NCBI GenBank assembly: GCA_025765615.1
Contig: JAIVFJ010000018.1
Location: 186,001 to 250,000, forward strand
Direction: 5' to 3'
DNA length: 64,000 nt
Source of the DNA: Zopfochytrium polystomum
Lineage: Eukaryota > Chytridiomycota > Chytridiomycetes > Chytridiales > Chytridiaceae
In this document: one piece after another, positions 31,901 through 63,690 of the stretch
How positions within the stretch are numbered: the first letter of the stretch is position 1
How the letters are laid out: each line of letters starts with the position of its first letter
The notes under the pieces: generated by a model
The model's database searches: none
What the model was told of the DNA's origin: nothing
The model's input: only the letters and a program-made list of their open reading frames with translations
Made by a program: the position numbers and the translations under genes

Positions 31901-32801
31901 AATCGTCAGTGACAGAGGACCACAGTTCAGATCTCAATTTTGGAAAGCACTCACAGCAGCCCTTGGAATCAAGTCTCAACTGTCAACTGCTTATCACCCT
32001 CAGACTGATGGACAAACAGAAAGAACAAACCAGACTCTGGAGCAGTATTTGAGGTGCTATGTCAGCTATCAACAGGATGATTGGCCCACCCTCCTTCCAC
32101 TGGCAGAATTTGCTCTCAACAATTCTCTCCACTCAAGCACCCAGCTATCTCCTTTCTTTGCAACCTATGGCTTCAATCCAAGAGGAGATCTTCTGGGACA
32201 AGAGACCCTATCCAATGTCCAAGCTCCTGCTGCGGCTTCACACTTACATAAGCTCAAGATCATCAACTCCTTCCTGGACTCCACCCTGAAGCAAGCCCAA
32301 GAAGATGCCTCAAGATTTGCCAACACTCACAGAATGGACCATGACCTTGCTGTGGGTCAGCAAGTTTGGCTTCTGAGGAAGAACTTGCAGACCAAAAGAC
32401 CAAGTCCCAAGCTAGACAACCTCAAGTTGGGTCCTTTCAAGATCTTGGAGCAAATCAATCCAGTCACCTTCAAGCTGGATCTCCCTGCATCCATGAAGAT
32501 CCACCCAGTTTTCCATGTCAGCCTTTTAGAGAAGTTTGTGGCCAATTCCATTCCAGGCAGAGTTGTTCCTCCTCCTCCTCCAGTTGAGGTAGAAGGTGAA
32601 GAGGAATTTGAGGTTGAACAAATCTTGGATGCCAAGTGGTTTGGAAGAACACTCAAGTTCCTTGTTAAGTGGAAAGGTTACTCAGATGCTGACAACACCT
32701 GGGAGCCTGAGTCAAACCTCACTCACTGCCAAGACCTTCTGCTCGAGTTCAAGACCAGGTACCCCACCAAGTTGCAGAAGAGGCCTAAAAGGGGGAGATG
32801 A
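28995..32801 (+). CDS. pol: Ty3 unit 3: truncated gag remnant plus intact Pol copy 3
   Basis: Same structure and breakpoint as unit 2. Pol is at 29082-32801 with all catalytic motifs intact. The constant 4160-bp offset from copies 1 and 2, with no indels, shows a very recent duplication, gene conversion or an assembly duplication. Confidence 0.9.
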
Positions 32802-44360: not shown

Positions 44361-45934
44361 TTACTTTCTCTTTCTGTTGATGATTTTTACTTATTTTTTC
44401 AATTAGTATTTTCCTTTGTTTTGGCTCTTTTTCTTGTTTTATCTTTTATTTAATTGTTTGTTTACTGTCTCTCTTTGTGTGTGTGTTGAGATTTGAGCCT
44501 AGGAAGCAAGCTTCTTATGTCAACAGCAGCCTCGTTGCTGCCGCAGATGTGACTTACACTAAGTTGGGTAAGCTGAAGGCCTAATCTGAATCCAACAAAA
44601 AGAGTTAGGTGAAGACGGCAGTGATTCTAGCTTTGCTTTCCAAGGCTTCACCAGCAAGGACAATGCGATTAGAATCACACTCAATGGGTTCAGAGAAATG
44701 TTGAACCAGGGCAGTTCACAGCAGCTCCAGGTCAGCTGACTGTTGTCTGAACCAATGATGAACCAGGGACTGGTTGATTTGAAATGCTCTGAATATTTCA
44801 AATCATCCTGCCTCTGTGGGAAGGGGTTTACAACACCTGCCCAAAGCAAAGTCCTGTCTGAAGCAGTTTGCAACTCGTTCAGATAGGCAAAACAGGAAAA
44901 CTGGTCAACCTCCCTGCAGGAGTATAAATTGGGCAGAGTTTTCTTATTGAAAAAAAACTCTCACTCCAATTTGCCAGTCCCGTCTAAAACAAGCTCTCTT
45001 TACCCACTTGCCCTTGGTTGCTTGCTACGCTCGCTCCCTTGTACAAGTTCTCAATTCAAGCCTTGGTTCCTCGTCCCTTCAACCTTCTTGCAACGCTGCC
45101 TCCAGTCATGACATCACCTTCTACACTGCAACTTCAACAGTGTGTCTTTCTTTTTTTCTGTGACTTTGGTGACTGTCTTCTTGTCTGCACCAATCATTTC
45201 TTGCCACCCCCCCCTCCACTCTGCTCTGGTGGCTGTCTGCCAAGAAATGGCCCCATGATTCTCTGAGCTGTCTCTCTTTGTTGGTGGCTCAGCCCCACTT
45301 GGTGAATCACCCTCCCATTCTTTCTTTCCTGTTTTATTTATTGTTTTGTTGTTTTGTATGTGCTTTCCCTCCCTTTTCCTCTCCTCTATGTGATTCCAAC
45401 CCTCTACTATTTAAACTGCTGCCCCCCCCTCTTGTTGACTGTGAGAACTGTACCTGAAGTCCTTTGCCTGCCCTTTTCTTCCTGACTGTGTGTATGAGCT
45501 GGGGGTTGCAGTCCCCTGGTGTGTGACAGGAGGGTTGGTTCCTTTTGGCCATCATGGCAGTGTGCTGGGCTCAATCTCCAGTGCACCTCACTGCGAGATT
45601 CCTAATCTCACTGATCATGGTCATAGCTGGGGTCTCCCTAAAAGCTCCCCCAGTTGTGACTATGTCATTATGTTGGCCCCCTGTATTTTTTTTTCTTTAT
45701 TACTGTTCATCACATCCCCCACAGGTTCTAGTGTTTATCACTATAAAAGAGCATCCTGTGTTCCTTGTGCTGAATGGGCCTAAGCACAAGGGACACACCC
45801 CTTCTTCATCCTATTCATTCTAAGTTTTACTCATTTTCCTTTTCTCTCATTTTCCCACCTTTCAATCCACTGTCCCTGCACTGATGTGGTCTCAAAGTCT
45901 CAAATTATGTTCACCCAAATTTGGAGGCAGGAGA
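44361..45934. other. Non-coding spacer, T-rich, unassigned
   Basis: No protein domain was recognised. Short frames near 45018-45266 and 45490-45823 are pyrimidine-rich and unsupported. The last five bases (GGAGA, 45930-45934) are the left target duplication of copia-A. Confidence 0.4.
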
Positions 45935-46173
45935 TGAAAGATTTCGTTGGGCTGGATTGTCTATGGGTTGTGCTGCTGTGGTGATGGGTGGAGTACACTA
46001 CTGAAGGTGGTGGTGGTGGGAGGTTGATCTTGGCTTCTGTCAGTCTTGTGTTTGTCTTTATACAAAACTGTTACAAGGACCATCACTTGCAAAATGCTGC
46101 AAGTCATCCTTGCAGAGCAGAAACTGGTCAAAGCTCCTGCACACTGCTTACACCAAAAGACCCAAAACTAACA
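45935..46173 (-). repeat. Copia-A 3' LTR
   Basis: 239 bp with TG...CA ends (TGTTAG...TTTCA on the element strand), identical by eye to the 5' LTR at 52215-52453. The polypurine tract AGGGGGGAG precedes it on the element strand. Confidence 0.93.
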
Positions 46174-46434
46174 CTCCCCCCTAAGCTGTGGGCAGGAGCA
46201 AAGGCCGGCACGGAGGAAAACCTTAAGCCATAGTCAACTTAAGGAAACCGTACACCGGAAAAAGAAGAATCACAAACAGGTATGACTGGCCATCGGATGG
46301 CAGAACAGAAAGGACAGACCACACTAGCAAAAATGGATGGGGGCACATATTGAACTTCAGAGGTAAAAGAAAATGAGTCAAAGTAATGAAAAAGAACAAA
46401 GAAGAAAACAACTTCACAGATAGAAAAAAATGAA

Positions 46435-48153
46435 TCAGAGGAAAGAGAAGAAACAAAGGCCAATACGACTCAAATGGTATTCACTGAGAGCAGCTGAGAG
46501 AGATTTCGTCATATAGTCTGCAGGCTGTTCTCCTCCAGCAATCCACTCAAGCCGTACTACTTTTTGTTCCACGAGTTCTCGAATATAATGATACTTTACC
46601 ATGATATGCTTTGACCGATTGGTGTAAAGATCATTTGAACTGAGGTTGATCACACCGCTGTTGTCAGTGTAGATGACAAGAGGAGTGGGAGACGGAAGTT
46701 GAAGTGCTGAATAGAGTTGGGACAGTGCCTTAAGTTCTCGTCCCAGTTCAGACACCGCTACATATTCAGCTTCCTGCGGTGACAGCATGACAGTGCTGCT
46801 TCGAACAGATGTCCAACTAATAGCTGTTCCTCCAAATAGAACATAGTAGCCAAGCTGTGATTTCCCATCTGAGTGGACACCATGGGCAGCATCGGAGTAA
46901 CCGGCTATATCTGTGCAGTTGCAAGAATAGAATAAACCATACTCACTAGTACTGTTGAGATATTCGAGAACCCGAATAAGGATCTTCATGTGTTGCTTGC
47001 TAGGGTCCTTGCTGAAGGCACCAAGGTAGGAAACTGCTGGGGCAAGGTCTGGCCGCGTGTGTGTTGCAAGGTAGTTGATGCCGCCAAGGATTGCCTGGTA
47101 CAGTCTCTGGTCTGCAGCTGCTTCGTCGATCCCACGTGGGTGAAGATTGAGACTACTGGGAAGGGCAGTTACTGCAGTGCGATTGTTGATAGTGTTGGCA
47201 TGGCGTTGAAGTAATTCCTTGATATAGGCTTTCTGGTGCAAGAAGATTCCGTTGTGGCGGTGTTCCAGTTGCATATTGAGGATGGTTTTGATTGTTCCTA
47301 TTTCGCGGAGCTTGTAACGAGATTTTAGCAGTGTGATGGCAAAGGTGATCTCCCCAGAATCCCCAAAGAAACAAATATCATCAACATAGATGGCAATGAA
47401 AATGACTTTTCCATCCACTTGACGGAAGAGGATACAGGGGTCTGCTGTGCTTTGCTGATATCCATTCGACTTCAGGTGGCTAATCAGTTCTTGGTACCAA
47501 CACCGGCCAGCTTGCTTGATACCATTAACAGCTCTCTTCAGTAGCCATACTTTGCCATCACTGCGGTAGCCATCTGGCTGCTCCATGTAAATGGGCACAT
47601 CAAGCATGCTGTTCAGGTACGCGTTGCTGATGTCGACAATAGCAGTGTGCCAGTTGTTTGCAGCCGCCATGGCAATGAGCCAACGAAGACTGTTGATTCG
47701 GACAACAGGAGAGTGAGTATTCCAAAAATCAATGCCATGACGTTGAGTGAAGCCCTTAGCCACAAGCCGTGCACGGAAGCGCTCAATGCTGCCGTCTGGT
47801 TTAAGTTTGACCTTATAGACCCATTTGTTCTGCACGACGTTGATGTTGGTGGGCCGCTCCACAACTTCAAAGGCTGCTAAAGTGCGAAGGGCATCGATCT
47901 CAGTCTGCTCTGCTGCAATCCACTCCTTGGACCATTTACCCGACATGGCTTCTGCACGAGTTTGGGGGTCAGGACATGTTGTGCTTGTGAGGTAGGTTTG
48001 CCCAGAACGCGTACGCTTGGCTGAGTTGTCAGGTGATGGTGAACGTGAATGTTGGTGATGAGGAGGTGGTTCTGGTGGAGGTGGTTCTGGAGGTGGAGAA
48101 GCCTGTGAGGCATCCCTAGTGGGTGTGTCTGCCATTGTTTTATCTTGTAGGGA
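46435..48153 (-). CDS. pol: Copia-A Pol 3' exon: reverse transcriptase-RNase H
   Basis: This part copies the RNA genome to cDNA. From the predicted acceptor the frame reads into MADTPTRD and a Pro/His-rich linker, then the copia RT: WSKEWIAAEQTEIDAL, VVRINSLRWLIAMAA, DISNAYLNSMLDVPIYMEQP and the catalytic YVDDICFFGDS. RNase H follows with GYSDAAHGVHSDGKSQ, SPQEAEYVAVSE and YTDNSGVINL. The frame is uninterrupted to the stop at 46435. The exon start at 48153 is inferred from conservation of the CCAAAG boundary in copia-B; an ATG at 48135 could also serve. Confidence 0.9.
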   Translation of the reverse strand, partial: SLQDKTMADTPTRDASQASPPPEPPPPEPPPHHQHSRSPSPDNSAKRTRSGQTYLTSTTCPDPQTRAEAMSGKWSKEWIAAEQTEIDALRTLAAFEVVERPTNINVVQNKWVYKVKLKPDGSIERFRARLVAKGFTQRHGIDFWNTHSPVVRINSLRWLIAMAAANNWHTAIVDISNAYLNSMLDVPIYMEQPDGYRSDGKVWLLKRAVNGIKQAGRCWYQELISHLKSNGYQQSTADPCILFRQVDGKVIFIAIYVDDICFFGDSGEITFAITLLKSRYKLREIGTIKTILNMQLEHRHNGIFLHQKAYIKELLQRHANTINNRTAVTALPSSLNLHPRGIDEAAADQRLYQAILGGINYLATHTRPDLAPAVSYLGAFSKDPSKQHMKILIRVLEYLNSTSEYGLFYSCNCTDIAGYSDAAHGVHSDGKSQLGYYVLFGGTAISWTSVRSSTVMLSPQEAEYVAVSELGRELKALSQLYSALQLPSPTPLVIYTDNSGVINLSSNDLYTNRSKHIMVKYHYIRELVEQKVVRLEWIAGGEQPADYMTKSLSAALSEYHLSRIGLCFFSFL

Positions 48154-48652
48154 CTTTGGAGGAATTAATTATAACAGTCTCAGATATCCAACGCACAAAA
48201 GTAAGCAAGGATGAAATGCACAGGTGAGCCTTCCGCACGATGCTGGTCTGGGCTCCCCCCAGTACCCTATGAGGTGAGGCAACCACTCCCCCATACACAG
48301 CTTGCCCTCAACGCTACCCCCCCGCGTCTCGCCTGGGCACATCAGGAGAATAACTGTCTCCTGGTTGGTGCTCCTCACGGAATGGGCTCCCTGCTCAGGA
48401 CTCCACCTCCTCTGACACAGGTCTGGGCCACACTAGCCTACGAGCTGGGGCTTCGGTTGTCGTGGGCCTTCGGTTGCTTCACATTGCCGGTCTACCCCCC
48501 GATCCGGTCTCCCTCAGTCACGCCTATAGTGCTCCCAATAAGGCCCACTGGAGATGACGTTAATTGCAGTAGCACGGAATCCAACCCATCATGCCGTCAC
48601 CTCCAACACCAGAGCTGTACATCATTATCTGATTCACTTTCGCTGTGCTTAC
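48154..48652 (-). other. Conserved intron-like structured segment between IN and RT (copia-A)
   Basis: A 499-nt segment with a CAG|GTAAGC donor and CCAAAG| acceptor, both in phase 0, so removal would fuse integrase to RT in one frame. Unspliced reading stops 27 codons downstream of the donor. The interior is not coding but is conserved with copia-B in blocks. A 10-bp stem pairs 48550-48559 with 48595-48604. See findings for the covariation. Confidence 0.7.
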
Positions 48653-50317
48653 CTGAGGGGTGACACTTTTTACCAATTCCACCGGGGCCACTGGTGTTGG
48701 TTCTGGCTCAGGGAGCTGTTCAATGTGTACGTTTGCTTCGCGAAGGAGGGCCTTGATGTTGCTGTTGGTTTCCTGAAGTTCGTCAGCTGAGAGTAAGGGC
48801 GTGTGGTGATGCTGTAGTTCTGAACTGTCATCATCAGCATCTGATTTGTTGAGTTTGGGAAAGCTGTCTTCGGCGATAGTGAGGTCGTTGAGGCGATGTG
48901 TGATAACGCGACCAGTGTTGATGTCGATGAGCCGGGCAATGGATCGGCCTATATTGCCAATGTATATTGCTGGTCGTGCTCGTTCTGCCAGTTTCTTGTA
49001 CTGGTGTGTGCTGCCGCGTTCCTTGGCTGTCACATGGTAGAGGCAACCAGCGCCAAAAACCCTAAAGTGGCTGATGCAGGGAGGAAAGCCAAGTAACATT
49101 TCAACCGGTGAAAGCAAACCACGACTGAGAACTGGCAGTGTGTTGATGATGTCCACGGCATGTCGAATAGCATAACCCCACCAAGACCAAGGTGAGCCAG
49201 CATGCTGAAGGAGTGAACGAGTTACATCCATGACTGTCCTAACTGCACGTTCTGCTTTGCCGTTGAGCTCTGGTGTGTGTGGTGGACTGACTTCAACCCG
49301 TATCCCACGAGAGGCACAGAAGCGTTCAAAGGCAGTTGACTTAAGTTCACCCCCATCAAACCTAACTGACTTAACCTGAACGTCTCGCACAGTCTGGAGT
49401 TGCTGAATGATTTTGATGGCTTCTGGTAAAGCATCAGACTTCCGTCGTAGGTTGGTTGACCAGATATAATTGCTGACATAGTCAATGGCAATGAGGGCAA
49501 AGCCGTACTGCCCCCTGAACTTGGGTTTGACCTCCACAAGGTCAAACGCCAAGTGTTCCCCAGGTAGCTTGTCCGGAGGATCTGTGTGGGGAATAGAGGC
49601 ACGTATCTGCTTTGCAATAATACAGGCCTTACACTCGTCCTCAAGCAGTTCTAAGTCTATGTCTGGAAAGTCAGCACAGGTTCGTCGTTCCTTCATGGAG
49701 CGAAGTCGAGCATAGGGAATGTGTCCTAGACGTTGGTGCAGTCGGCGAGTGTCTGGTTTTTTGCTGTTGAGAAATGCTGCACGAATGCTGTGTGTGTCTG
49801 CAGGTTCTGCTGACGTGAAAAAGTTGTAATATCTGCTGGCGCAATGGGCGAGAAATTGAGTGCTGTAATTGAAGGTTGGGTTTGCTGCAGTTGGGAACCA
49901 CTGGAGACCGTGCCGAAGGATCATTTGAAGAACTGCTGGGTCACCTTCTTCATGACTGCTGCGGTGAATAACACCTGGTTGGAGGTCTCGTGCCAAGTGA
50001 TAGTAACCGCATAGCTGGAGGTCCCTGTCGGCAATAAGGTTGACTGGGCATTCTGGAGCAAACTGCGCGCCTTCAATAATGAGAGTGATGTTGTTTGCAA
50101 GAGGAATTCGTGCAACGCCTGAGCCCTCGCAGTTGAGAACTGGGCCTTCCTTTGCGATGCGCATACTGGATTTTTGGTTGTTGAAGGTTGATGGGATAAA
50201 GAAGGAGAAATCACGAAGAGTAGTAACATTGCAACCGTTATCAATAAGGAGAGGAAAGGAAGTAACAGGAGGTGGAATGTTGACTGCAAATGCCCGGATC
50301 ACTCCCGGGCCATCCAA
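48653..50317 (-). CDS. pol: Copia-A Pol 5' exon: protease-integrase
   Basis: It contains the aspartic protease LLIDNGCNVTTLRDFS, which has Asn in place of the usual Ser/Thr, and the GAG-pre-integrase HHCC finger (RLHQRLGHIPYARL ... CKACIIAKQ). The integrase core follows with AFDLVEVKP, VRFDGGELKSTAFERFC and PPHTPELNGKAERAVRT, then the C-terminal WWGYAIRHAVDIINTLP. It is in the -1 frame relative to Gag and overlaps Gag's last codons. The overlap holds GATTTTTGG, where a P-site TTT could slip one base back. The exon ends at CAG before the intron-like segment. Confidence 0.9.
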
Positions 50318-51615
50318 AAATCCTGTTGGTGGTTGTCGTCACTTTGGCCGCCAAGCTGTGAGTTGTAAGTCTCTTCCCATAACTGCTGTTCGTTTGCAAA
50401 CTGCTGACTCTGTTGTTCATCCCAATCACTGTCTGCTGGTGCACTGTATGTTAGGAGTGCCTGCTGGGATTGCTGAGGCATCTGCTCCTGCACGTTTGCA
50501 GCTGAAGGACATTCCCTTGCATAATGTCCACGACCACTGCAATTGTTGCAGGTGACATTTGCGGATGCCCGGCTCTGGTGTGGACGGAATGGTTGCTGTG
50601 GTCGCCATCCACTTTGCTGGAGTCGCCATCCCATCTGCTGGGGTCGCCAACTTCCTTGAGAGAGTGGAGTGGGCCCTCTGCCAAAGCCACCATAGGGTCG
50701 TGGGGTGTATGGCTGTGGCCTTGGTTGGAGCGGTCGATAGCCACCACGGCCTCGGGGGTGGGTGTAGTGAACTTGGGCAACATTTGCAGTTGGTGTGTTG
50801 ACCTCTGGGGCTGCAGTGGAGGTGTCCCCTTCTCTTTGATTTGCCAGCTCGATGCGTCGCTTATCATAGTTGTTTTGACGAACAGTTTGTTTGAAGAGTG
50901 AGATTAGTTTGGCTAAACTTGTTATCTCAGGAGCTGGGTTGCCGACAACAAGAAAAACGTTTCCTATCCCCATGTCCAATAGGCTTTGGTTCAGTGAACC
51001 AACAAAGATTCGAACAACTTTTTGGAAAGGGCGGATACGATGGAGAAGTTCTCCCGCTGCTGATTTTGCAAAGCTGTCAACTCGATGGTATGCTTCAGTG
51101 AATCGGGTAATGAAGGCATCTGAGGCTTCAGTTGGTTCCATTTTGATGCGTTCAAAGTCGTCAATGATCTCCTTTGCGAGTCCCTGGTCTGCTGTGCGGC
51201 AAATTATTCCCAATTCACCAACCAACTCATAAGCAAAGTTTCGACCAGGTGTGATTTGGGTGAGAAGGGCTCGAGAGATGTGGCGGCGAATAATTAGACA
51301 GCAATGTGCATTCTGGTTCTGTGTACCAGGAAACCAAGTTACTTTCTCTTGTCCACGAGGCGGAGGCACCAATTGGAATCTCTGTCCTTGGAATGGTCCA
51401 TCTCTGATGAGACAGGTTCCAGTGTCGCGGAGGTCTAGTGGATCAATTGCATCATTCTGCTCTGCGTTGATGTGACTTGTGTCAATGCAGTGGCGTAAGT
51501 CGACATTTTTGTTGGAGAGTTCTGCTGTAAGATCCTCCAACCAGTCACCGAAATTCTCTGGTCCCTCCAAGACGCTGAAGGACTTGGCAACATACTTGGT
51601 TGAGTCAGTAGTCAT
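50299..51615 (-). CDS. gag: Copia-A Gag
   Basis: A 438-residue copia Gag. The capsid region (UBN2/retrotran_gag type) includes FGDWLEDLTAELSNKN, GLAKEIIDDFERIKMEP and LNQSLLDMGIGNVF. A Gly/Arg/Pro/Gln-rich linker and one zinc knuckle, CNNCSGRGHYAREC, follow, then a Gln-rich acidic tail ending DFWMARE. The start ATG at 51615 is preceded by a ~600-nt leader that runs to the 5' LTR. Confidence 0.92.
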   Translation of the reverse strand: MTTDSTKYVAKSFSVLEGPENFGDWLEDLTAELSNKNVDLRHCIDTSHINAEQNDAIDPLDLRDTGTCLIRDGPFQGQRFQLVPPPRGQEKVTWFPGTQNQNAHCCLIIRRHISRALLTQITPGRNFAYELVGELGIICRTADQGLAKEIIDDFERIKMEPTEASDAFITRFTEAYHRVDSFAKSAAGELLHRIRPFQKVVRIFVGSLNQSLLDMGIGNVFLVVGNPAPEITSLAKLISLFKQTVRQNNYDKRRIELANQREGDTSTAAPEVNTPTANVAQVHYTHPRGRGGYRPLQPRPQPYTPRPYGGFGRGPTPLSQGSWRPQQMGWRLQQSGWRPQQPFRPHQSRASANVTCNNCSGRGHYARECPSAANVQEQMPQQSQQALLTYSAPADSDWDEQQSQQFANEQQLWEETYNSQLGGQSDDNHQQDFWMARE

Positions 51616-52200
51616 GCTGTTTTCTCAGGACGATTATGTGTGCCAAGTTTGAAAGGATTTCGTTGGATTTTGGGTGTGTTGTGAAGGTGGTGTTGCAGCA
51701 GATGAAAAGTTGGTTTGTTAGCTTGGTGTGTGTCAGGTAGGGGGGTGGTCGTTGTCTCCAATTGGGGACAAAAAATCAAAAATTAATGGTGAGGGTTGGA
51801 GGTAATCTGGTGACCCTGAATGGAAAAAGTGGGCGCTTATCGCAAAGGAGAGTGATTTTGGGATCCCGTTGGTGACAGTTGTGTAGTCCGGAAGCAGGCC
51901 TTTCGAATGATAGCTTGGGATTGGCTGGGGGAGGTCTGGAAGGCCAGCAAATTAAGGTTGAAGTTGGAAAAGTGGTTGCCAACTTCAGAGGTGGTGTACG
52001 CAACGTAGGAGCGTCGGATCCGAGATCAGGTGGGTTCGTTGGAAAGAGGAGATCGAGAGCTTTCCAATGGTAGTAACAGAATTGCTGTACGATGTCTGTA
52101 GCGTCCGTGATCGATCCCCAAAGTTGGCAGATCTGAAAAGCGTACAGGCTCTTCTACTGATTGGATCTTGTTGAAATCAAGGGGGAAGTGATTGGGATGG

Positions 52201-52214
52201 GTAACAGTTTTGTA
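52201..52214 (-). promoter_or_regulatory. Copia-A primer-site region complementary to its own LTR
   Basis: The 14 nt directly after the 5' LTR (element strand TACAAAACTGTTAC) are the exact reverse complement of GTAACAGTTTTGTA inside the LTR (plus-strand 52341-52354). Copia-B shows the same pairing with compensating changes. No tRNA complementarity was recognised. Confidence 0.7.
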
Positions 52215-52453
52215 TGAAAGATTTCGTTGGGCTGGATTGTCTATGGGTTGTGCTGCTGTGGTGATGGGTGGAGTACACTACTGAAGGTGGTGGTGGTGGG
52301 AGGTTGATCTTGGCTTCTGTCAGTCTTGTGTTTGTCTTTATACAAAACTGTTACAAGGACCATCACTTGCAAAATGCTGCAAGTCATCCTTGCAGAGCAG
52401 AAACTGGTCAAAGCTCCTGCACACTGCTTACACCAAAAGACCCAAAACTAACA
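52215..52453 (-). repeat. Copia-A 5' LTR
   Basis: 239 bp, identical by eye to the 3' LTR. On the element strand a TATAAAG box lies at about position 115, overlapping the LTR segment complementary to the primer-site region. This places that segment in U3 if the box is used. Confidence 0.93.
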
Positions 52454-53829
52454 GGAGAGACACGGGGTGGAAGGGAGTGTGGCTGAAAGAGTGATTCATA
52501 CTTCCAAATTGTTCTTTCTTTCATTTTCTCCTTTTTTTTATGTCTTTTCCCTTTTTCTCTTTTCTTTCTTTCTTCCTTCTTTTCTTCTTTCTCACCTCTC
52601 CTTTCCTAAAAAAATTCCCTCTCTCTCCTCTTTTGTTCTATATCTATCTTTTCTCTCTCAATAAATCCTACCTAGGTAACTGTTAGATTTTGGGTTTTTG
52701 CAGTAAGCTGTGTGCAGGAGCAACACCTCACACTGTGGTGCATGGGAGCACCAACTGTGATGAGGATTTGGTGCATTTTTTGTCACCTGGTCTTTGTCAC
52801 AATTTTGTATAAAGCCAAACAGCATACATTGTACAACAGTCTCCCACCTCAGCTTCACCATCACAAGAGAGTGGTCCACCAGAGTAGTTCACCACCATCC
52901 ACAAACAGCAGCTGTCATTTCTTTCATACAAAATTGTGACCCATCCCAATCATCTGGAGTATAAACAACGTGCAGAACACAGCAACACACTTGAAAAGCG
53001 CACAGAACGAGCAAACAGAAGCAGTGCCACTCGCCATCACACTATCAACTTGCTCAGTTTTTGTACCCCCACCATTCCACCACGTCTACACCACTTTTAA
53101 CACTGGGGAAGACGTTTTGACGATCGTTTTTCACTGCAGCAGCGTCGCAGAGCGTGTAAAAGCACTCATCCACAACATCAGCCACCTGATAACGTCGAAT
53201 TTCGAGAGTTTACGTTTGCAACTTCTTTCAATCGCTTTAGGAATCGCTTACCACCATTTGAAAGTGCTCCTTTTGTTCTATCTACCCACCAAATATCGTG
53301 ATCTTCGACTGGTTCCTTGCAGAATAACAGCTGTCCGTGTTTTTACTGTTCAATTAGCACTCAACTCGTCGAAATTGCTGTATTGGAGCTTCCCACCAAC
53401 ACAACTCAGCCAAAACCAGACCAAATTGCCTCAATCCAATTTTCCTGCATTGCTCAGCGCCCAATCTTCGTGATTCCACTCGGTGATCAATCAGATACAT
53501 CTACTTTCATTGCAGAATATTGAATAACGACGAGCTGCAACCATATTTTGCAGTATCCAGTTGTGCCACTACTCAATTTTCGCTTCAAACCCCGTGACAA
53601 GTCTGTTTTTCTCGTCCCCAACTCGCTACACTCGTGTGCAAACTTGGCTACATCACCTATCCACCTATCCACACCCATACCTTGACCATCAAGTGTCGTG
53701 TCACGCTTGTTGAGTGTCGACTTAAAGACTGCTACTATTCCCTACGAAGGGTTACCACTAAATCAGGGAAATCACTGCCTTTCAAATTTCTATTCTCCTG
53801 CAAAGCTCTCACACATTTTCCTCCCAAGC

Positions 53830-55247
53830 ATGAGCGAGCGTGATCAAATCAAGTATGCTTCCCGTGCATTCCCCATCCTCAAAGGCGCAGCAAATTTTGG
53901 AGATTGGCTGGACGACCTAATTTCAGAACTATCCAACAAAAGCAATGGTCTCCGCCACTGCGTCGACCCAGACCAAATTAACGTATTACCCAATGAACAA
54001 GTGGACCCCAATGATCCTAATGTCGGCCCAACATGCAGAGTACGCAGGGGCCCAACCATGGCAAGCATTATGCATTTGCACGAGACGGGCGTGAGCCGGT
54101 CAAATGGCTCCCAGGGACAGAAGACCAGAACGCATACTGTATCCTTCTCATTCAACGACATGTTGAACCAGAGCTTCTACCACAGTTCCCCCGACGAGGG
54201 TAGATTTTTGCCTACACACTGCTTGGAGAAATTGCGATTGCATGTCAAACAACAGATCAAGGATTAGCAAAGGAAATTATTGATGATTTCGAACGTATAA
54301 AAATGGAACCTGCAGAATCATCCGAGTCATTTGCAATGCGCTTCATTACAGCTTACCACAAAGTAGAAAGCTTTGCAGAAAGTTCATCACTGGAAATCCG
54401 CAGTCGCATCACACCATTTTCCAAAGTTGTGCGAGTCTTCGTATCTGCCCTGAACAACACACTAATCGATATGGGTGTTGCCAATACGTTCATGTTTGCA
54501 GGGAATCCTATCACTTCTGTTTCATCATTGACTAAACTAATCACCTTATTTAAATCTACCGCCCGCCAAAATACACATGATGAGAGGCGGGATCGACTTG
54601 CAGCACAACAGGAGCGGGACCTGACAACAGCCGTTCCAGAAGTCATTACACCAACAGCAAATGTAATTATTCGGCCAAAAGTACACTATAGTCAACTCCG
54701 CAGTCGTAGCAGTTATCATAAACCTCAGCAGTACCAGCCGTATCCTAATATCCGCCCAACAACCTTGCAGTACCAAAACCCTCAGTCCCAACAGTACACA
54801 CCGCGCCCATATGGTGGTTTTGGCCGAGGCCGAGGAACATGGCGAGGACTAAGTTCACGTGGAACAGCAACAGGTGGTACCGCAATGGGACGCGGCTCTG
54901 GGGGGAGTTGGTACCCTGCACAGCAACAGTCTTTTGGAGTCCAATGTCATGCATGTGGAGGCTATGGTCATGTTGCTCGACAGTGTGCCAACACATTTCT
55001 TCAGCAATTGCAGCAACAGCAACAGAATCGACCACCAGCAAACCCAAATGCGCTCTTAATCCAGCAACCAAACCCTCCACAACAGCAGATACCTGAAAAC
55101 CAAGCACTTCTGCTACAGAACGGTGATTGGGATGACCAGCAAAGTGAGCAGTATGCTGCAGAACAGCAATTGTGGATGGAAACGCAACTCAAATCAGAGA
55201 CCGAACAAGATGAAAGTCAACAGGATTTTTGGATGGCCCGAGAGTAA
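53830..55247 (+). pseudogene. gag: Copia-B Gag, left arm copy (broken)
   Basis: Related to copia-A Gag: it starts MSERDQIKYASRAFPILKG and ends DFWMARE, with a zinc knuckle CHACGGYGHVARQC. The frame shifts once around 54030-54060, and an in-frame TAG lies at 54201 before FAYTLLGEI. The same lesions occur in the right arm, so they predate the inverted duplication or were copied with it. Confidence 0.82.
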
Positions 55248-56172
55248 TCCGGGCATTAGCAGTTAACGTCCCTTCCCTTCCAATTTCTTTTCCTGTACTC
55301 ATCGACAACGGTTGCAATGTCACAACGCTTCGAGATTTCTCTCTCTTCATTCCCTATAGTTATACTCAGCAGAAATCTAGCATGCATATCGCCAAAGAAG
55401 GACCTATTCTCACTTGTGAAGGATTCGGCACAGCTCTCATACCACTCGCCAACAACATCACACTTATAATTGAAGGTGCCCAATATGCTCCAGAATGTCC
55501 TGTCAACTTGGTCGCTGATTGGGACCTACAACTATGTGGCTTCTTCCATCTTGCACGAGACCTTTCACACAATCTCTTCCAAGACATGTTGGTTCACCAT
55601 GGTCATGGTGGGGATACGCGATTCGACATGCAGTAGATATCATCAATACACTTCCTGTCGTCAGCCGTGGATTACTATCTCCAGTTGAAACGCTTCTTGG
55701 ATTCCCTCCATGCATCAGTCAATTCAGAGTTTTTGGCTCAGGATGTTTGTATCATATCACAGCAAAGGAATGTGGACAAACACATCAGTTTAAAAAGCTT
55801 GCAGAACGCGCCCGACCAGCAATTTACATTGGAAACATTGGTCGTTCCATTGCTCGTTTGATTGACATCAGCACGGGTAGAGTAATCACTCATCGATTGG
55901 ATGACCTTGTGGTTGCAGAAGACAGTTTCCCTCGCCTCAGCACCTCAGCAGCAGAGGATATTGCTCAGGACCTCGTTCATCAGCTAACACCACTCCTCAG
56001 CAAAGATGAACTTACATCAACTGAACAAAACATCACCAACCTCCTTCGTGAAGCCAATGTTCGCGTAGATCAATTCCCAGAACCAGGACCAGCAGCGGTA
56101 GCTGAACGACAACCTTCCACAGAACTAGCACCAAATGAACATGAAGTGGTCCAGGTACGGCAGAGAAAGTGA
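55229..56172 (+). pseudogene. pol: Copia-B protease plus integrase with core deletion, left arm
   Basis: The protease part (VLIDNGCNVTTLRDFS) reads to HLARDL, then joins directly to sequence matching the integrase C-terminal region (GSPWSWWGYAIRHAVD) in another frame. By comparison with copia-A about 250 residues are missing, including the HHCC finger and the DDE core. The same deletion is present in the right arm. Confidence 0.82.
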
Positions 56173-56186
56173 ATCGGATAACGATG

Positions 56187-56427
56187 GAAATGACAGCTGC
56201 TGTTTGTGGATGGTGGTGAACTACTCTGGTGGACCACTCTCTTGTGATGGTGAAGCTGAGGTGGGAGACTGTTGTACAATGTATGCTGTTTGGCTTTATA
56301 CAAAATTGTGACAAAGACCAGGTGACAAAAAATGCACCAAATCCTCATCACAGTTGGTGCTCCCATGCACCACAGTGTGAGGTGTTGCTCCTGCACACAG
56401 CTTACTGCAAAAACCCAAAATCTAACA
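56187..56427 (-). repeat. Copia-B 3' LTR, 5 bp short at its outer end
   Basis: It matches the 246-bp LTR at 62196-62441 except that the terminal TGAAA (plus strand) is missing where it joins the inverted arm. The other end is normal (CTAACA) and is followed by the polypurine tract complement CTCCCCCCT. Confidence 0.9.
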
Positions 56428-56711
56428 CTCCCCCCTAATCTGTGGGCAGGAGCAAAAGGGCCAGCACGGAGGAAAACCTTACGCCATAGGCAACGTAAGG
56501 AAACCGTACACTGGTTAAGGAAAAGCAATAAACAGGTATGACTGGCCACCAGGTGGCAGAACAATAAGAAAAGAATGCCCATATGAAATTTGTAGATGGA
56601 GAGCAAAGAAGCTTGAATGCAGGAATATAAGAAGCAATGCAGAAGAAGAAGAAGGGCAAGAAAGAGAAAGGAGAAAGAGAATGCAATACAAATAAAGAAA
56701 GGGGACAGAAA

Positions 56712-58436
56712 CTAAGGCACACGACAAAGACCAATATGACTAAGATGGTAAGCACCTAAAGCAGCTGGTAATGATTTTGTAAGATAATCTGCTGGTTGCT
56801 CGCCACCATGAATCCATTCCAGTCGAATCACTTGTTGATCAACCAGTTCCCTGATATAGTGATACTTAACCGGAATATGTTTTGACCTATTAGTGTAGAG
56901 ATCGTTTGAGCTCAAATTGATAACGCCTTGGGTGTCAGTATAGATTGGAATAGGAGTTGGGGATGGGAGCATAAGTGCTGTGTGCTGTTGTGAGATGGCC
57001 TCCAGTTCTCATCCTAGTTCTGAGACTGCAATGTATTCTGCTTGCTGAGGTGACAGCATAACTGTAGGACTGCGAGTTGATGCCCAGCTGATAGCGGTAT
57101 TTCCAAACAAAGCGAAGTAGCCAAGTTGTGATTTCCCATCAGCATGAACTCCATGAGCAGCATCCGAGTAGCCGAAAATTCCAGACCCTGTGTTGGAATA
57201 AAACAAACCATACTCACATGTACCATTGATGTATTGAAGGACTCGAATGAGGATCTGCAAGTGGTGTTTGCTTGGGTCCTTGCTGAAGGCGCCAAGATAT
57301 GAGACTGCTGGTGCCAAGTCTGGTCGTGTGTGTGTTGCCAAATAGTTGCTGCCACCAAGGATTGCTTGGTAGAGCTGTTGATTTGCTGTGGGTTCATCAT
57401 TTTCTCGAGGTTGAAGAGTGAGAGGACTGGGGAGAGCAGTTACTGCTGTCTTCTTTCCATTGACTAGGTCTGCATGGCGTTGGAGTAACTCTTTGGTGTA
57501 AGCTCGTTGATGCAAGTAGATGCCAGTTGGTGTTTGATGAACTTCCATATTCAGTACGGTCTTGATATGACCTAGTTCGCGGAGCTTATAGAAGGATTTT
57601 AGCAAAATGATGGCAGAGGTGATTTCCTCTGTGTGCCCAAAGAAACAAATATCATCGACATAGATAGCAATGAAAATAATACATTCCTTTGTGCGCTTGA
57701 AGAGGATGCACGGATCTGCTGCGCTTTGTTGGTAGTTGGCAGACTTGAGACGACCAATGAGCTCCTGGTACCAACAACGCCCCGCTTGCTTGATACCGTT
57801 GACAGCTTTGTGCAAAAGCCAGACCTTGCCATCCGAACGGTAGCCATCTGATTGCTCCATGTAGATGGGGACATCAAGTTTGCTGTTGAGGTAGGCATTG
57901 CTAATATCGACCATAGCTGTGTCCCAACCGTTTGAGGCTGTCATAGCAAGGAGCCATCGTAGACTATTGATGCGAACAACAGGAGAGTGAGTGTTCCAGA
58001 AATCAACGCCACGACGCTGTGTAAAGCCCTTCGCCACTAGTCGTGCACGAAAGCGCTCACTGCTGCCGTCCGGTCGAAGCTTGACCTTGTAAACCCATTT
58101 GTTCTGCACGACATTGACATTCTTGGGTCGATCAACGACTTCGAAAGCTGCAAGCATTCTGAGAGCGTCAATCTCTGTTTGCTCTGCTGCTATCCACTCT
58201 TTGGACCACTTTCCACTCATGGCCTCAGTGCGTGTTACCGGGTCTGGACATTTGACACTGGTTAAATATAGATGTCCAGATCGAGTATGTTTTGGAGATG
58301 GGCTGCACGTAGGGCTGCATGGTGATTTGCGCACATGTGTAGGTGGAAGCTCTAGTGGTGGAGGTTCTGGTGGTGGCGCTTGAGGTGGTAGGTCTCTAGT
58401 TGGTGTTTCAGCAATTGTTTTGTCATCAGGGGTATG
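56712..58436 (-). pseudogene. pol: Copia-B Pol 3' exon: RT-RNase H with one premature stop
   Basis: The RT is complete (VVRINSLRWLLAMTA, DISNAYLNSKLDVPIYMEQ, YVDDICFFGHT). RNase H reads GYSDAAHGVHADGKSQ and SPQQAEYIAVSELG. A TGA at 57011-57009 replaces the Arg codon found in copia-A right after SELG, and the same frame then continues to 56712 (YTDTQGVINL...). The lesion is consistent with a single C-to-T change. Confidence 0.88.
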
Positions 58437-58967
58437 CTTTGGTGGTGTTAGTAAAATGACAGAGGTGTTTGTGAGTATTAGGATGCAGAAAAAGGAAATA
58501 GAAAAATCATTGGCAGGTGAGCCTTCTGCACGATGCGGCTCGGGACACCCCGTGCTAGAGAGCCTTCTCTTCCTCTCTCCACAGCCCGCCTTCTGCACTT
58601 TCCCCCATGCGTAACGTCAGGCGCCAAAGGACCTATCTCCCCTGGTGGTGTTCCCTACGGAATGGGCTCCCCAAACAGGCATCCATCCCTTCTGACTTGG
58701 GTTCACGCCACACTAGCTCCCGCAGGGTCGGTATGGCCCAGGGCCTTCGGTTGCGCCACCCACGTCACTCCCAGCCGAGAGTGCGCCTGCAGTCACAGAG
58801 CCAGTTGCCGCCCTCACTCATCCGATTGGTCCCCCGGCTTTAGTGCTCGTAGGTAAGGCCCACTGGAGATGGCGTTAATTGCGGTAACACGGAGTCCATC
58901 CCGTCGTGCCGCCACCTCCAACACTTCGTGCTGTACATCGTTATCCGATTCACTTTCTCTGCCGTAC
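58437..58967 (-). other. Conserved intron-like structured segment between IN and RT (copia-B)
   Basis: A 531-nt segment bounded by CAG|GTACGG and CCAAAG|, both phase 0, with a TACTAAC branch-point consensus 58453-58447 just upstream of the acceptor. It shares blocks with the copia-A segment, including the stem pairing 58865-58874 with 58910-58919 and a 3'-proximal GCATCGTGC-GAAGGCTCACCTG element. Confidence 0.7.
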
Positions 58968-59893
58968 CTGGACCACTTCATGTTCATTTGGTGCTAGTTC
59001 TGTGGAAGGTTGTCGTTCAGCTACCGCTGCTGGTCCTGGTTCTGGGAATTGATCTACGCGAACATTGGCTTCACGAAGGAGGTTGGTGATGTTTTGTTCA
59101 GTTGATGTAAGTTCATCTTTGCTGAGGAGTGGTGTTAGCTGATGAACGAGGTCCTGAGCAATATCCTCTGCTGCTGAGGTGCTGAGGCGAGGGAAACTGT
59201 CTTCTGCAACCACAAGGTCATCCAATCGATGAGTGATTACTCTACCCGTGCTGATGTCAATCAAACGAGCAATGGAACGACCAATGTTTCCAATGTAAAT
59301 TGCTGGTCGGGCGCGTTCTGCAAGCTTTTTAAACTGATGTGTTTGTCCACATTCCTTTGCTGTGATATGATACAAACATCCTGAGCCAAAAACTCTGAAT
59401 TGACTGATGCATGGAGGGAATCCAAGAAGCGTTTCAACTGGAGATAGTAATCCACGGCTGACGACAGGAAGTGTATTGATGATATCTACTGCATGTCGAA
59501 TCGCGTATCCCCACCATGACCATGGTGAACCAACATGTCTTGGAAGAGATTGTGTGAAAGGTCTCGTGCAAGATGGAAGAAGCCACATAGTTGTAGGTCC
59601 CAATCAGCGACCAAGTTGACAGGACATTCTGGAGCATATTGGGCACCTTCAATTATAAGTGTGATGTTGTTGGCGAGTGGTATGAGAGCTGTGCCGAATC
59701 CTTCACAAGTGAGAATAGGTCCTTCTTTGGCGATATGCATGCTAGATTTCTGCTGAGTATAACTATAGGGAATGAAGAGAGAGAAATCTCGAAGCGTTGT
59801 GACATTGCAACCGTTGTCGATGAGTACAGGAAAAGAAATTGGAAGGGAAGGGACGTTAACTGCTAATGCCCGGATTACTCTCGGGCCATCCAA
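58968..59893 (-). pseudogene. pol: Copia-B protease/integrase remnant, right arm
   Basis: The mirror image of the left-arm copy with the same protease site (DNG) and the same deletion of the integrase catalytic core. It ends at the CAG preceding the intron-like segment. Confidence 0.82.
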
Positions 59894-61292
59894 AAATCCT
59901 GTTGACTTTCATCTTGTTCGGTCTCTGATTTGAGTTGCGTTTCCATCCACAATTGCTGTTCTGCAGCATACTGCTCACTTTGCTGGTCATCCCAATCACC
60001 GTTCTGTAGCAGAAGTGCTTGGTTTTCAGGTATCTGCTGTTGTGGAGGGTTTGGTTGCTGGATTAAGAGCGCATTTGGGTTTGCTGGTGGTCGATTCTGT
60101 TGCTGTTGCTGCAATTGCTGAAGAAATGTGTTGGCACACTGTCGAGCAACATGACCATAGCCTCCACATGCATGACATTGGACTCCAAAAGACTGTTGCT
60201 GTGCAGGGTACCAACTCCCCCCAGAGCCGCGTCCCATTGCGGTACCACCTGTTGCTGTTCCACGTGAACTTAGTCCTCGCCATGTTCCTCGGCCTCGGCC
60301 AAAACCACCATATGGGCGCGGTGTGTACTGTTGGGACTGAGGGTTTTGGTACTGCAAGGTTGTTGGGCGGATATTAGGATACGGCTGGTACTGCTGAGGT
60401 TTATGATAACTGCTACGACTGCGGAGTTGACTATAGTGTACTTTTGGCCGAATAATTACATTTGCTGTTGGTGTAATGACTTCTGGAACGGCTGTTGTCA
60501 GGTCCCGCTCCTGTTGTGCTGCAAGTCGATCCCGCCTCTCATCATGTGTATTTTGGCGGGCGGTAGATTTAAATAAGGTGATTAGTTTAGTCAATGATGA
60601 AACAGAAGTGATAGGATTCCCTGCAAACATGAACGTATTGGCAACACCCATATCGATTAGTGTGTTGTTCAGGGCAGATACGAAGACTCGCACAACTTTG
60701 GAAAATGGTGTGATGCGACTGCGGATTTCCAGTGATGAACTTTCTGCAAAGCTTTCTACTTTGTGGTAAGCTGTAATGAAGCGCATTGCAAATGACTCGG
60801 ATGATTCTGCAGGTTCCATTTTTATACGTTCGAAATCATCAATAATTTCCTTTGCTAATCCTTGATCTGTTGTTTGACATGCAATCGCAATTTCTCCAAG
60901 CAGTGTGTAGGCAAAAATCTACCCTCGTCGGGGGAACTGTGGTAGAAGCTCTGGTTCAACATGTCGTTGAATGAGAAGGATACAGTATGCGTTCTGGTCT
61001 TCTGTCCCTGGGAGCCATTTGACCGGCTCACGCCCGTCTCGTGCAAATGCATAATGCTTGCCATGGTTGGGCCCCTGCGTACTCTGCATGTTGGGCCGAC
61101 ATTAGGATCATTGGGGTCCACTTGTTCATTGGGTAATACGTTAATTTGGTCTGGGTCGACGCAGTGGCGGAGACCATTGCTTTTGTTGGATAGTTCTGAA
61201 ATTAGGTCGTCCAGCCAATCTCCAAAATTTGCTGCGCCTTTGAGGATGGGGAATGCACGGGAAGCATACTTGATTTGATCACGCTCGCTCAT
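59875..61292 (-). pseudogene. gag: Copia-B Gag, right arm copy (broken)
   Basis: The exact reverse complement of the left-arm gag with the same frameshift and nonsense codon. The remaining open part (60819-59875) encodes the Gln-rich linker and zinc knuckle. Confidence 0.82.
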
Positions 61293-62181
61293 GCTTGGGA
61301 GGAAAATGTGTGAGAGCTTTGCAGGAGAATAGAAATTTGAAAGGCAGTGATTTCCCTGATTTAGTGGTAACCCTTCGTAGGGAATAGTAGCAGTCTTTAA
61401 GTCGACACTCAACAAGCGTGACACGACACTTGATGGTCAAGGTATGGGTGTGGATAGGTGGATAGGTGATGTAGCCAAGTTTGCACACGAGTGTAGCGAG
61501 TTGGGGACGAGAAAAACAGACTTGTCACGGGGTTTGAAGCGAAAATTGAGTAGTGGCACAACTGGATACTGCAAAATATGGTTGCAGCTCGTCGTTATTC
61601 AATATTCTGCAATGAAAGTAGATGTATCTGATTGATCACCGAGTGGAATCACGAAGATTGGGCGCTGAGCAATGCAGGAAAATTGGATTGAGGCAATTTG
61701 GTCTGGTTTTGGCTGAGTTGTGTTGGTGGGAAGCTCCAATACAGCAATTTCGACGAGTTGAGTGCTAATTGAACAGTAAAAACACGGACAGCTGTTATTC
61801 TGCAAGGAACCAGTCGAAGATCACGATATTTGGTGGGTAGATAGAACAAAAGGAGCACTTTCAAATGGTGGTAAGCGATTCCTAAAGCGATTGAAAGAAG
61901 TTGCAAACGTAAACTCTCGAAATTCGACGTTATCAGGTGGCTGATGTTGTGGATGAGTGCTTTTACACGCTCTGCGACGCTGCTGCAGTGAAAAACGATC
62001 GTCAAAACGTCTTCCCCAGTGTTAAAAGTGGTGTAGACGTGGTGGAATGGTGGGGGTACAAAAACTGAGCAAGTTGATAGTGTGATGGCGAGTGGCACTG
62101 CTTCTGTTTGCTCGTTCTGTGCGCTTTTCAAGTGTGTTGCTGTGTTCTGCACGTTGTTTATACTCCAGATGATTGGGATGG

Positions 62182-62195
62182 GTCACAATTTTGTA
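62182..62195 (-). promoter_or_regulatory. Copia-B primer-site region complementary to its own LTR
   Basis: The element strand TACAAAATTGTGAC pairs exactly with GTCACAATTTTGTA in the LTR (plus-strand 62313-62326). Relative to copia-A two positions differ, and both are compensated in the partner. Confidence 0.7.
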
Positions 62196-62441
62196 TGAAA
62201 GAAATGACAGCTGCTGTTTGTGGATGGTGGTGAACTACTCTGGTGGACCACTCTCTTGTGATGGTGAAGCTGAGGTGGGAGACTGTTGTACAATGTATGC
62301 TGTTTGGCTTTATACAAAATTGTGACAAAGACCAGGTGACAAAAAATGCACCAAATCCTCATCACAGTTGGTGCTCCCATGCACCACAGTGTGAGGTGTT
62401 GCTCCTGCACACAGCTTACTGCAAAAACCCAAAATCTAACA
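62196..62441 (-). repeat. Copia-B 5' LTR
   Basis: 246 bp, TGTTAG...TTTCA on the element strand, related to the copia-A LTR mainly at the ends and around TATAAAG. It is an exact mirror of 52681-52926. Confidence 0.92.
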
Positions 62442-63690
62442 AAAAAAGGATATCCGGTACGCACAAAATATTGCAGTGGCGCTGGGCCCGCTTGTGGCCT
62501 GATCCGCGTTGCGTCGCCGCCCTGATTCTGGCTCCATCAGCCCTTCTGCGTTTGTACCGACCAAGAGCGGACCATCTGCTTCAGTTAAGAGACCAAAGGG
62601 GCTCAAAAAATGTTTCATCCATCTTAAGTGTCGAGCCGTCGGTGTCGTCCACAAGATGGGGTGCGTCGCGTCGTAAGCTAATTTTTTTCCTAAAACTGTT
62701 GTGGCCGAAAGCCGCGGCAGCGGCGGGGTGTTGATAGTGGTTTAGGAAAAATCACTTTCCAGCGCTGTCGGGGGCAGAGAAAAACGAATCTTTCGGATCT
62801 GAGAGCCACAGATGGGGCCATTGTAGTGCCATTTCAATGCCAGTCAGTCGGCGGCCTCCTTGCACACCGCTCCAGCGCCCGTGCTCTGCTCAGTGGCGCT
62901 TACAACAACAACAGAGACCGCATCCACGGAGGGCGCCAGACAACAAGAAGATATGACCGTTTCCCCATAGTCCAACCTGTCTTGCGTTGGCCCCTTTCCT
63001 CCTTCACAGCCTGTTACTCCACCACTTCAAATCCCAAACCTCGTTGGCATGGAACGAGAGTGCAAAAAATCGTTGAGTGTCAAAATGATTCACCTGATTT
63101 CTGTCAAATACGGAATCCAATTAATAGTGACTGACTGATCTTGAAATTATAGTTCCCTGACCACCCTGCACCAACCAAGTGGATGAACCATCCACCCACA
63201 GCGTTTGCCCGGAGCTTGCGTCAGGGCGCCAGCCCTGACCCAAGCAACCCTTGCTGAGCCTAACTTCATCGTGGCCCTTCGTGGTCCGCCACACTACGTT
63301 TATATTTGCACGCCCATTGTGGCCAGCTACACTTGGTTCTTTGTCCATGCCGCTCTCTATAATCCGTCTGTACTTCGCTCACCTTGGGGCAGAACGGATA
63401 TCTGCTTGCTACTTGTCTGTCTTTTCCACCGCCCATCATCATCATTCGTTCGCCATTGCTGATTTCCACAGGCGAGGTGCCCACCACCACCACACCAGCA
63501 GCAGCTTCAGCAGCAGCTGCTACTGAAATCATTCGGGATGTTGCCTCCAATTGACTCGAATTGCCTTCAATGGCAGCCCTTTAACACTATATCGACCATG
63601 TGTGTAAGGGGTAAATTGGTCACAGTAGCTGCATTATTTGTGGCAATGGCGGCTACTGTCACTGGCAGGTGGTGGCGTCAGCAACAGTAG
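62442..63690. other. Unassigned spacer right of the palindrome
   Basis: No conserved domain or RNA gene was recognised. Short frames near 62826-63134 and 63205-63526 lack support. Higher GC than the copia block suggests host or older repeat sequence. Confidence 0.35.

What the first reader, a model, noticed from the sequence alone, without database searches (positions are those of the whole stretch)
48154..48652. Conserved intron-like RNA segment splitting copia Pol between integrase and RT
Both copia families carry a ~500-nt segment at the same place with phase-0 CAG|GTA.. and CCAAAG| boundaries; removal fuses IN and RT. A retroelement should lose a spliceosomal intron on passage through spliced RNA, so its retention in two diverged families implies selection, for example to set a Gag-PR-IN : full Pol ratio. 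The segment is also structured. A 10-bp stem (48550-48559 with 48595-48604) is matched in copia-B (58865-58874 with 58910-58919) by a compensatory A-U to G-C change, with the same 35-nt loop interval. The inner GCAyG/CGTGy pairing also covaries, and a 3'-proximal GCATCGTGC-GAAGGCTC stem is shared. This may be a regulatory or catalytic RNA not previously described in copia elements.
Basis: partly seen in the sequence, partly recalled or inferred. Interest (0 to 1): 0.88.

Follow-up and report, generated by a model that had tools for sequence, protein, structure and literature searches.

The report
Structured intron inside copia Pol genes
A family of jumping genes in a fungus-like genome keeps, in the copies checked, an intron-like piece between its integrase and reverse transcriptase, and much of that piece is conserved, folded RNA that may mark the uncut RNA as the genome to be copied.

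Summary
Copia-A (48154-48652) and copia-B (58437-58967) carry an intron-like segment at the same place, phase 0, with GTA...AAAG ends and a branch-like YTAAY. A third, non-autonomous family (C; 142 sites with its donor boundary) has it too. Coding constraint starts right after the AAAG end. No spliced copy was found: junction searches gave 0 hits for A, B and C, and 49 of 49 A-type exon-2 starts have the segment directly upstream. Between A and B, fourfold sites in RT are 45% identical, but a 5' block of the segment is 84%, a 3' block 88% and a middle block 69%; other core parts are 45-58%. The A/B alignment folds better than 400 of 400 column shuffles (z -5.1; usable coding controls 0.4 to -1.7), though the first 150 columns alone do not stand out. 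Best reading: a spliceosomal intron harbouring a ~430-nt structured cis element acting on unspliced RNA (packaging, export or splicing control). Nothing points to a ribozyme. Splicing and function are unproven: no RNA data, one genome, effectively one deep comparison (A and C versus B). Intron-bearing LTR elements are known (Ogre, Drosophila copia, BARE1, EVADE), so this is a new variant of a known kind.

The parts
52214..52453 (-). copia-A 5' LTR
   Evidence: 240-nt direct repeat identical to 45934-46173
50299..51624 (-). copia-A gag reading frame with zinc knuckle
   Evidence: PF00098 at residues 358-374
48560..50338 (-). copia-A protease-integrase frame; reads 30 codons into the segment before a stop
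   Evidence: SH3_retrovirus over its cut-off, rve and gag_pre-integrs just under theirs; protease inferred from position
48154..48652 (-). copia-A intron-like segment (499 nt), GTAAGC at 48652, AAAG at 48154, phase 0
   Evidence: sequence; 40 of 40 scored genome places (of 342 candidates) match at 92-100%
48221..48643 (-). conserved structured core inside the segment
   Evidence: A/B block identity versus fourfold sites; alignment fold z -5.1, 0 of 400 shuffles
48614..48641 (-). 5' block of the core (GAAAGTGAATCAGATAATGATGTACAGC)
   Evidence: 265 genome sites with <=3 mismatches, 0 control
48550..48604 (-). hairpin: 48595-48604 pairs with 48550-48559 (A-U in A, G-C in B at one pair)
48221..48243 (-). 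3' block of the core (GCATCGTGCGGAAGGCTCACCTG)
   Evidence: 280 genome sites with <=3 mismatches, 0 control
48164..48168 (-). branch-site-like TTAAT (CTAAT in 4 of 8 A loci), 11 nt before the AAAG end
46435..48153 (-). copia-A reverse transcriptase-RNase H frame (exon 2)
   Evidence: RVT_2 E 1e-53; 14 of the 150 scored RVT_2 places have the same open frame length of 577 aa
45934..46173 (-). copia-A 3' LTR
58437..58967 (-). copia-B intron-like segment (531 nt), GTACGG to AAAG, phase 0
   Evidence: 40 genome places (of 306 candidates) at 96-100%
58514..58959 (-). copia-B structured core
57009..58436 (-). copia-B reverse transcriptase frame (this copy ends early at a stop)
56187..62441 (-). copia-B element between its 241-nt LTRs

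Best explanation
It is a spliceosomal intron inside the pol gene of a small clade of Ty1/copia elements. Its interior is a ~430-nt folded RNA acting in cis on unspliced element RNA. Spliced RNA joins integrase to RT-RNase H and serves as mRNA for full Pol. Unspliced RNA ends Pol just inside the intron (Gag, protease and integrase only) and, because it alone still carries the core, is the RNA that is exported, packaged and reverse transcribed. That would keep spliced RNA out of the replication cycle and so keep the intron. Shown: intron anatomy, phase, coding constraint starting at exon 2, no spliced copy found by the searches made, selection on core blocks between A and B, alignment-level structure. 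Inferred: that splicing occurs and is partial, and that the core acts in packaging or export rather than in splicing control.
For: Intron: donors GTAAGC (8 of 8 A loci), GTA[CT]GG (30 of 32 B-type loci with a 5' block), GTAATC (16 of 16 C-type loci with a 5' block). Branch-like ACTAAC in 33 of 33 B-type tails, CTAAT in 16 of 17 C-type tails, CTAAT or TTAAT in 8 of 8 A tails, 11-12 nt before the end. Six host introns in the window, read by eye, have GT donors of similar kind and AG ends. In the ten codons KT[MI]A[DE]TPTRD near the start of exon 2, all six A/B differences are at third positions. No spliced-junction copy for A, B or C with <=3 mismatches; 49 of 49 A-type exon-2 starts have the segment upstream. 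Selection: A/B fourfold identity 77/173 in RT and 26/79 in the integrase tail, against 107/128 and 23/26 in core blocks. Read on from integrase, the 5' block lies in different frames in A and B, so it is not protein. Structure: z -5.1, 0 of 400 shuffles, antisense -3.4, four usable RT controls 0.4 to -1.7; 19 of 91 pairs have two-sided changes, reached by 10 of 500 shuffles. Deletion derivatives keep the segment: family C and two A copies that share an integrase deletion ending about 13 nt before it.
Against: No RNA data. The 3' end is AAAG, whereas the six host introns read by eye end in CAG or TAG. Within family C the segment is no less variable than its flanks (medians mostly 3-7% throughout), so C copies show no selection on it. 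Nearly all covariation is one contrast (A and C against B). Pair types beyond the first (47) are fewer than in the shuffles (mean 51.9; 500 of 500 at least as high). Of seven 150-column windows only two fold clearly better than shuffles (3 and 0 of 200; the other five 19 to 96 of 200). The pairs closing the core hardly vary, so they are untested. Packaging signals need not be intronic: in Rous sarcoma virus Psi is in spliced and unspliced RNA (PMC5035971, figure legend passage). Two of 32 B-type loci have lost the GT, and some A and C copies the final AG.
Confidence: 0.55

Rival explanations
1. The fold serves splicing itself: pairing of the 5' block with the 3' block brings the splice donor near the branch site, so that a ~500-nt intron behaves like the 47-80-nt introns of the host; nothing is packaged through it.
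For: Consensus fold closes columns 17-40 with 394-398 and 452-471; about 15 nt lie between donor and stem and about 55-65 nt between stem and branch site; six host introns read by eye are 47-80 nt.
Against: Closing pairs are nearly invariant, so untested; a short intron would do as well, so it does not explain why ~430 nt are kept; does not explain the absence of spliced copies.
Confidence: 0.25
2. The segment is not spliced; the core is an internal ribosome entry site that starts translation of RT-RNase H as a separate product.
For: Structured RNA shortly before the RT frame; copia-A has ATG at nt 19-21 of exon 2.
Against: Copia-B has ATT at that codon; codon-level constraint includes and precedes it; donor, branch-like site and acceptor recur in three families; a tail of about 67-77 nt, little conserved, separates the core from the RT frame.
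Confidence: 0.08
3. The intron is kept only to lower the amount of RT relative to Gag and integrase; the conserved blocks are splicing regulators.
For: Unspliced RNA stops Pol inside the segment; Drosophila copia, BARE1 and EVADE use splicing to raise Gag (PMC3735527 and PMC12786077, passages).
Against: Gag excess may already be provided by a -1 frameshift at the gag end (inferred); a ratio role does not by itself prevent copying of spliced RNA.
Confidence: 0.1
4. Self-splicing or otherwise catalytic intron.
For: About 430 nt of conserved structure.
Against: No Rfam match at E <= 1 over 46000-63000 on both strands; spliceosome-type ends and branch-like site.
Confidence: 0.02

Closest known systems
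Ogre (Ty3/gypsy, legumes) intron-containing LTR retrotransposons
   Same: A spliced intron between reading frames (PMC12786077 and PMC3735527, passages; the Ogre paper itself was not held; position between protease and RT recalled).
   Different: Other superfamily; other position; no conserved structured core known to me.
Drosophila copia, BARE1, EVADE (Ty1/copia) alternative splicing
   Same: Copia-superfamily elements whose RNA is partly spliced, giving two kinds of RNA (PMC3735527, PMC12786077, passages).
   Different: There splicing removes pol or shifts the frame so that the spliced RNA makes Gag only; here the spliced RNA would make full Pol.
Cer1 (C. elegans) and IAP/MusD RNA transport elements
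   Same: Special means to export unspliced genomic RNA (PMC10309623, abstract; PMC12786077, passages).
   Different: Cer1 uses a protein; RTE and MTE are other RNA elements; no sequence relation was tested beyond the Rfam scan.
Retroviral Psi / RRE
   Same: A structured cis element used by unspliced genomic RNA (general knowledge).
   Different: Different place in the element; analogy only.

Membership tests
Ty1/copia LTR retrotransposon (copia-A) | LTRs, gag with zinc knuckle, integrase before RT, RVT_2 RT | tested here: met
   (rve just under its cut-off, SH3_retrovirus over it)
Spliceosomal intron | GT donor, branch-like site, AG acceptor in several families | tested here: met
   a few copies have lost one of them
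Spliceosomal intron | Flanking frames compatible, coding up to the junctions | tested here: met
   for A and B; not in non-autonomous C
Spliceosomal intron | Removal from RNA observed | not testable with these tools
   no RNA data held
Group I / group II self-splicing intron | Match to the family's covariance model | tested here: not met
   no match of any family at E <= 1
Cis-acting structured RNA | Sequence constraint beyond neutral sites | tested here: met
   A against B; within C not seen
Cis-acting structured RNA | Conserved pairing beyond shuffled alignments | tested here: met
   for the whole core; two of seven windows
Cis-acting structured RNA | Covariation in several independent lineages | tested here: inconclusive
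   mostly one split, A and C against B
Packaging or export signal | Bound by Gag or export factor, needed in cis | not testable with these tools
   no experiment; retention in non-autonomous C is only suggestive
IRES | Conserved start codon directly after the RNA | tested here: not met
   ATG in A is ATT in B; non-AUG starts not excluded

The most novel reading that the evidence does not exclude
A Ty1/copia clade has put its genome-selection signal inside an intron of pol, so that splicing separates messenger from genome: only RNA that escaped splicing carries the folded signal needed for export, packaging or reverse transcription, and this self-enforcing arrangement keeps a spliceosomal intron in a retroelement indefinitely and lets non-autonomous derivatives travel by keeping the same intron.
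Probability: 0.4. Interest if true: 0.78.

Novelty: new variant of a known kind. Interest (0 to 1): 0.6.

Why it matters
Retroelements are expected to lose spliceosomal introns, so one that is present in three families of a clade, with blocks more conserved than silent sites of its own genes, is a natural test of how an element tells messenger from genome. It gives a defined RNA of about 430 nt whose role in splicing, export or Gag binding can be tested directly, in a group (Ty1/copia elements of a chytrid-like host) where the choice of genomic RNA is poorly known (my judgement).

Tried and rejected
Selection shown by family C: rejected. A first window count suggested that the segment varied less than its flanks in C, but with local pairwise alignment the divergence is flat. 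The B loci were chosen by similarity of the segment, so within-B counts are biased and not used.

A/C identity as proof of constraint: rejected. C is also 88-94% identical to A in gag and about 90% in the 3' half and LTR.

Single-sequence folding energy: not significant. Inner GCAyG/CGTGy helix: one-sided changes only.

Relatives elsewhere: RT homologues at 46-48% identity in Chytriomyces confervae and unnamed contigs, but their DNA could not be reached; a scan of viral contigs found none. P0001 by eye runs from integrase to RT in one predicted protein, which does not tell whether a gene caller removed an intron.

Literature: the listings (no paper) showed no description of an intron between integrase and RT in copia elements; I saw titles and starts of abstracts, passages of four papers (PMC12786077, PMC3735527, PMC5035971, PMC5718144) and the abstract of PMC10309623. 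This does not show that none exists.

Full report
What is there. Copia-A lies on the minus strand between LTRs at 52214-52453 and 45934-46173. Its gag frame has a zinc knuckle, the next frame integrase-type domains (SH3_retrovirus over its cut-off; rve and gag_pre-integrs just under theirs) and the last frame RVT_2. Between integrase and RT lies the segment 48652-48154. The integrase frame runs 30 codons into it and stops; the RT frame opens at its end. Copia-B has the same layout with a 531-nt segment at 58967-58437. The host is an 80-Mb, 761-contig genome. The best-named RT relatives come from Chytriomyces confervae at 46% identity, so a chytrid-like fungus is likely.

How widespread. The 28-nt 5' block of the segment occurs 265 times in the genome and the 23-nt 3' block 280 times with up to 3 mismatches; the reversed patterns occur 0 times. 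The 40 scored places for A (of 342 candidates) match at 92-100% and 40 places for B (of 306 candidates) at 96-100%. A third family, C, has 142 sites with its donor boundary, a few of them mosaics with A. The C copy read at length is non-autonomous: gag pieces 88-94% and the 3' half and LTR about 90% identical to A, an RT piece 75%, 2.2 kb without similarity to A in place of protease-integrase, frames broken by stops, and the segment kept from 29 nt upstream of its donor. Other Copia clades of the genome have long frames around RT (for example 1,657, 1,740 and 1,906 aa among 150 scored of 987 candidates), so the segment seems to belong to this clade.

Is it an intron. Donors are GTAAGC (8 of 8 A loci), GTA[CT]GG (30 of 32 B-type loci with a 5' block; two have TT) and GTAATC (16 of 16 C-type loci with a 5' block). 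A branch-like YTAAY stands 11-12 nt before the end: ACTAAC in 33 of 33 B-type tails, CTAAT in 16 of 17 C-type tails (one is truncated), CTAAT in 4 and TTAAT in 4 of 8 A tails. The end is AAAG in 8 of 8 A, 31 of 33 B-type (one more has GAAG) and 15 of 17 C-type tails. The A and B loci were picked by similarity to the window's segments and the C loci by an exact 3' block, so these are not random samples. Exon 2 is coding near the junction: A and B share DKT[MI]A[DE]TPTRD, and all six nucleotide differences in its last ten codons are at third positions. Donor and acceptor frames agree in phase 0 in both. Six host introns in the window, read by eye, are 47-80 nt long with similar donors but CAG or TAG ends; the copia intron is about six to eleven times longer.

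Is it ever lost. Searches for the spliced junction gave 0 hits for A, B and C with up to 3 mismatches. The A-type exon-2 start occurs 49 times within 3 mismatches. Of these, 39 coincide with segments and 3 with 3' blocks; the remaining 7 were fetched and each has segment sequence directly upstream, one only its 3' half: 49 of 49. In the loci held before that, 48 of 48 exon-2 starts had the 3' block upstream (these overlap the 49). No such census was made for B or C, and more diverged copies would be missed.

Is the interior selected. A and B are far apart: fourfold-degenerate sites are identical at 77 of 173 in RT and 26 of 79 in the integrase tail, and codon positions 1 and 2 in RT are 82% and 86% identical. 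In the core, columns 6-135 are identical at 107 of 128, columns 449-474 at 23 of 26 and columns 220-330 at 75 of 108, while the stretches between are 45-58% with many gaps. The patchiness speaks against a recent exchange between the families. Read on from integrase, the 5' block lies in different frames in A and B, so protein coding does not explain it. Within C, by contrast, the segment varies as much as its flanks, so nothing can be claimed from C copies.

Is it structured. A 20-sequence alignment gives one consensus fold of 91 pairs: a long-range closing stem between the 5' and 3' blocks and several inner helices. 98.3% of cells pair, against 37-44% when the partner is slid; 19 pairs have changes on both sides (10 of 500 shuffles reach this), but further pair types (47) are reached or exceeded by 500 of 500 shuffles. 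Since the fold was derived from this alignment, these controls are generous to it. The fairer test is column shuffling: A3/B3 z -5.1 with 0 of 400 shuffles as good; antisense z -3.4 (1 of 400); RT coding controls with identities 0.68-0.77 give -1.7, -1.5, -1.2 and 0.4 (a fifth, z 0.04, is misaligned). Most compensatory changes are one split, A and C against B, and the closing stem hardly varies. Rfam has no match at E <= 1.

How it most likely works. The intron would give two RNAs. Spliced RNA encodes integrase fused to RT-RNase H. Unspliced RNA stops inside the intron and keeps the folded core. If the core is needed for export, packaging or reverse transcription, spliced RNA cannot re-enter the genome, which explains why no spliced copy is seen, why blocks of the interior are conserved while the tail is not, and why deletion derivatives (C; L091 and L093) keep it. 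Gag excess may be made separately, by a -1 frameshift at the gag end. The strongest rival is that the fold helps the splicing of an intron that is long for this host. Both could be true.

Against known systems. Splicing in LTR elements is known: Ogre and EVADE contain functional introns (PMC12786077, passages), BARE1 and Drosophila copia make spliced Gag RNAs, and Ogre splices between ORFs (PMC3735527, passages). Cer1 needs a protein from a spliced RNA to export its unspliced RNA (PMC10309623, abstract). What differs here is the position between integrase and RT, the direction (splicing would make full Pol), and the conserved folded interior. The searches listed no such case, which is not proof. 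I file it as a new variant of a known kind.

Noticed in passing
window 50240-50380 and 59810-59950, minus strand: Gag and pol overlap in the -1 frame in both A and B, with the shared stretch CAACAGGATTTTTGGATGGCCC; the heptamer G GAT TTT is a plausible -1 slippery site (resemblance to the yeast L-BC virus site is recalled).
   Followed up: partly
window 52681-56186 and 58936-62441: Two 3,506-nt inverted arms reported as 100% complementary: a second half copy of copia-B abuts the end of its 3' LTR and stops about 32 nt inside the intron. This looks like one cDNA end joined into the intron of another copy (autointegration-like), or an assembly fold-back.
   Followed up: partly
L091, L093: Two copia-A copies sharing an integrase deletion of about 1 kb that ends about 13 nt before the splice donor; the intron is kept.
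   Followed up: partly
L089 and up to 142 genome sites: Non-autonomous family C: A-like LTR, partial gag and 3' half, 2.2 kb unrelated to A in place of protease-integrase, intron kept from 29 nt upstream of the donor.
   Followed up: partly
L077; G000 C81:73872 and C155:25254: Copies with a C-type donor side and an A-type intron or 3' side: probably recombinants between families.
   Followed up: no
window 20714-32801: Three tandem copies of a Ty3/gypsy-like element, each with an identical-looking 1,255-aa frame.
   Followed up: no
window 48205-48663, plus strand: A 152-aa open frame antisense to the intron; one-base indels between A and B make it unlikely to be a gene.
   Followed up: no
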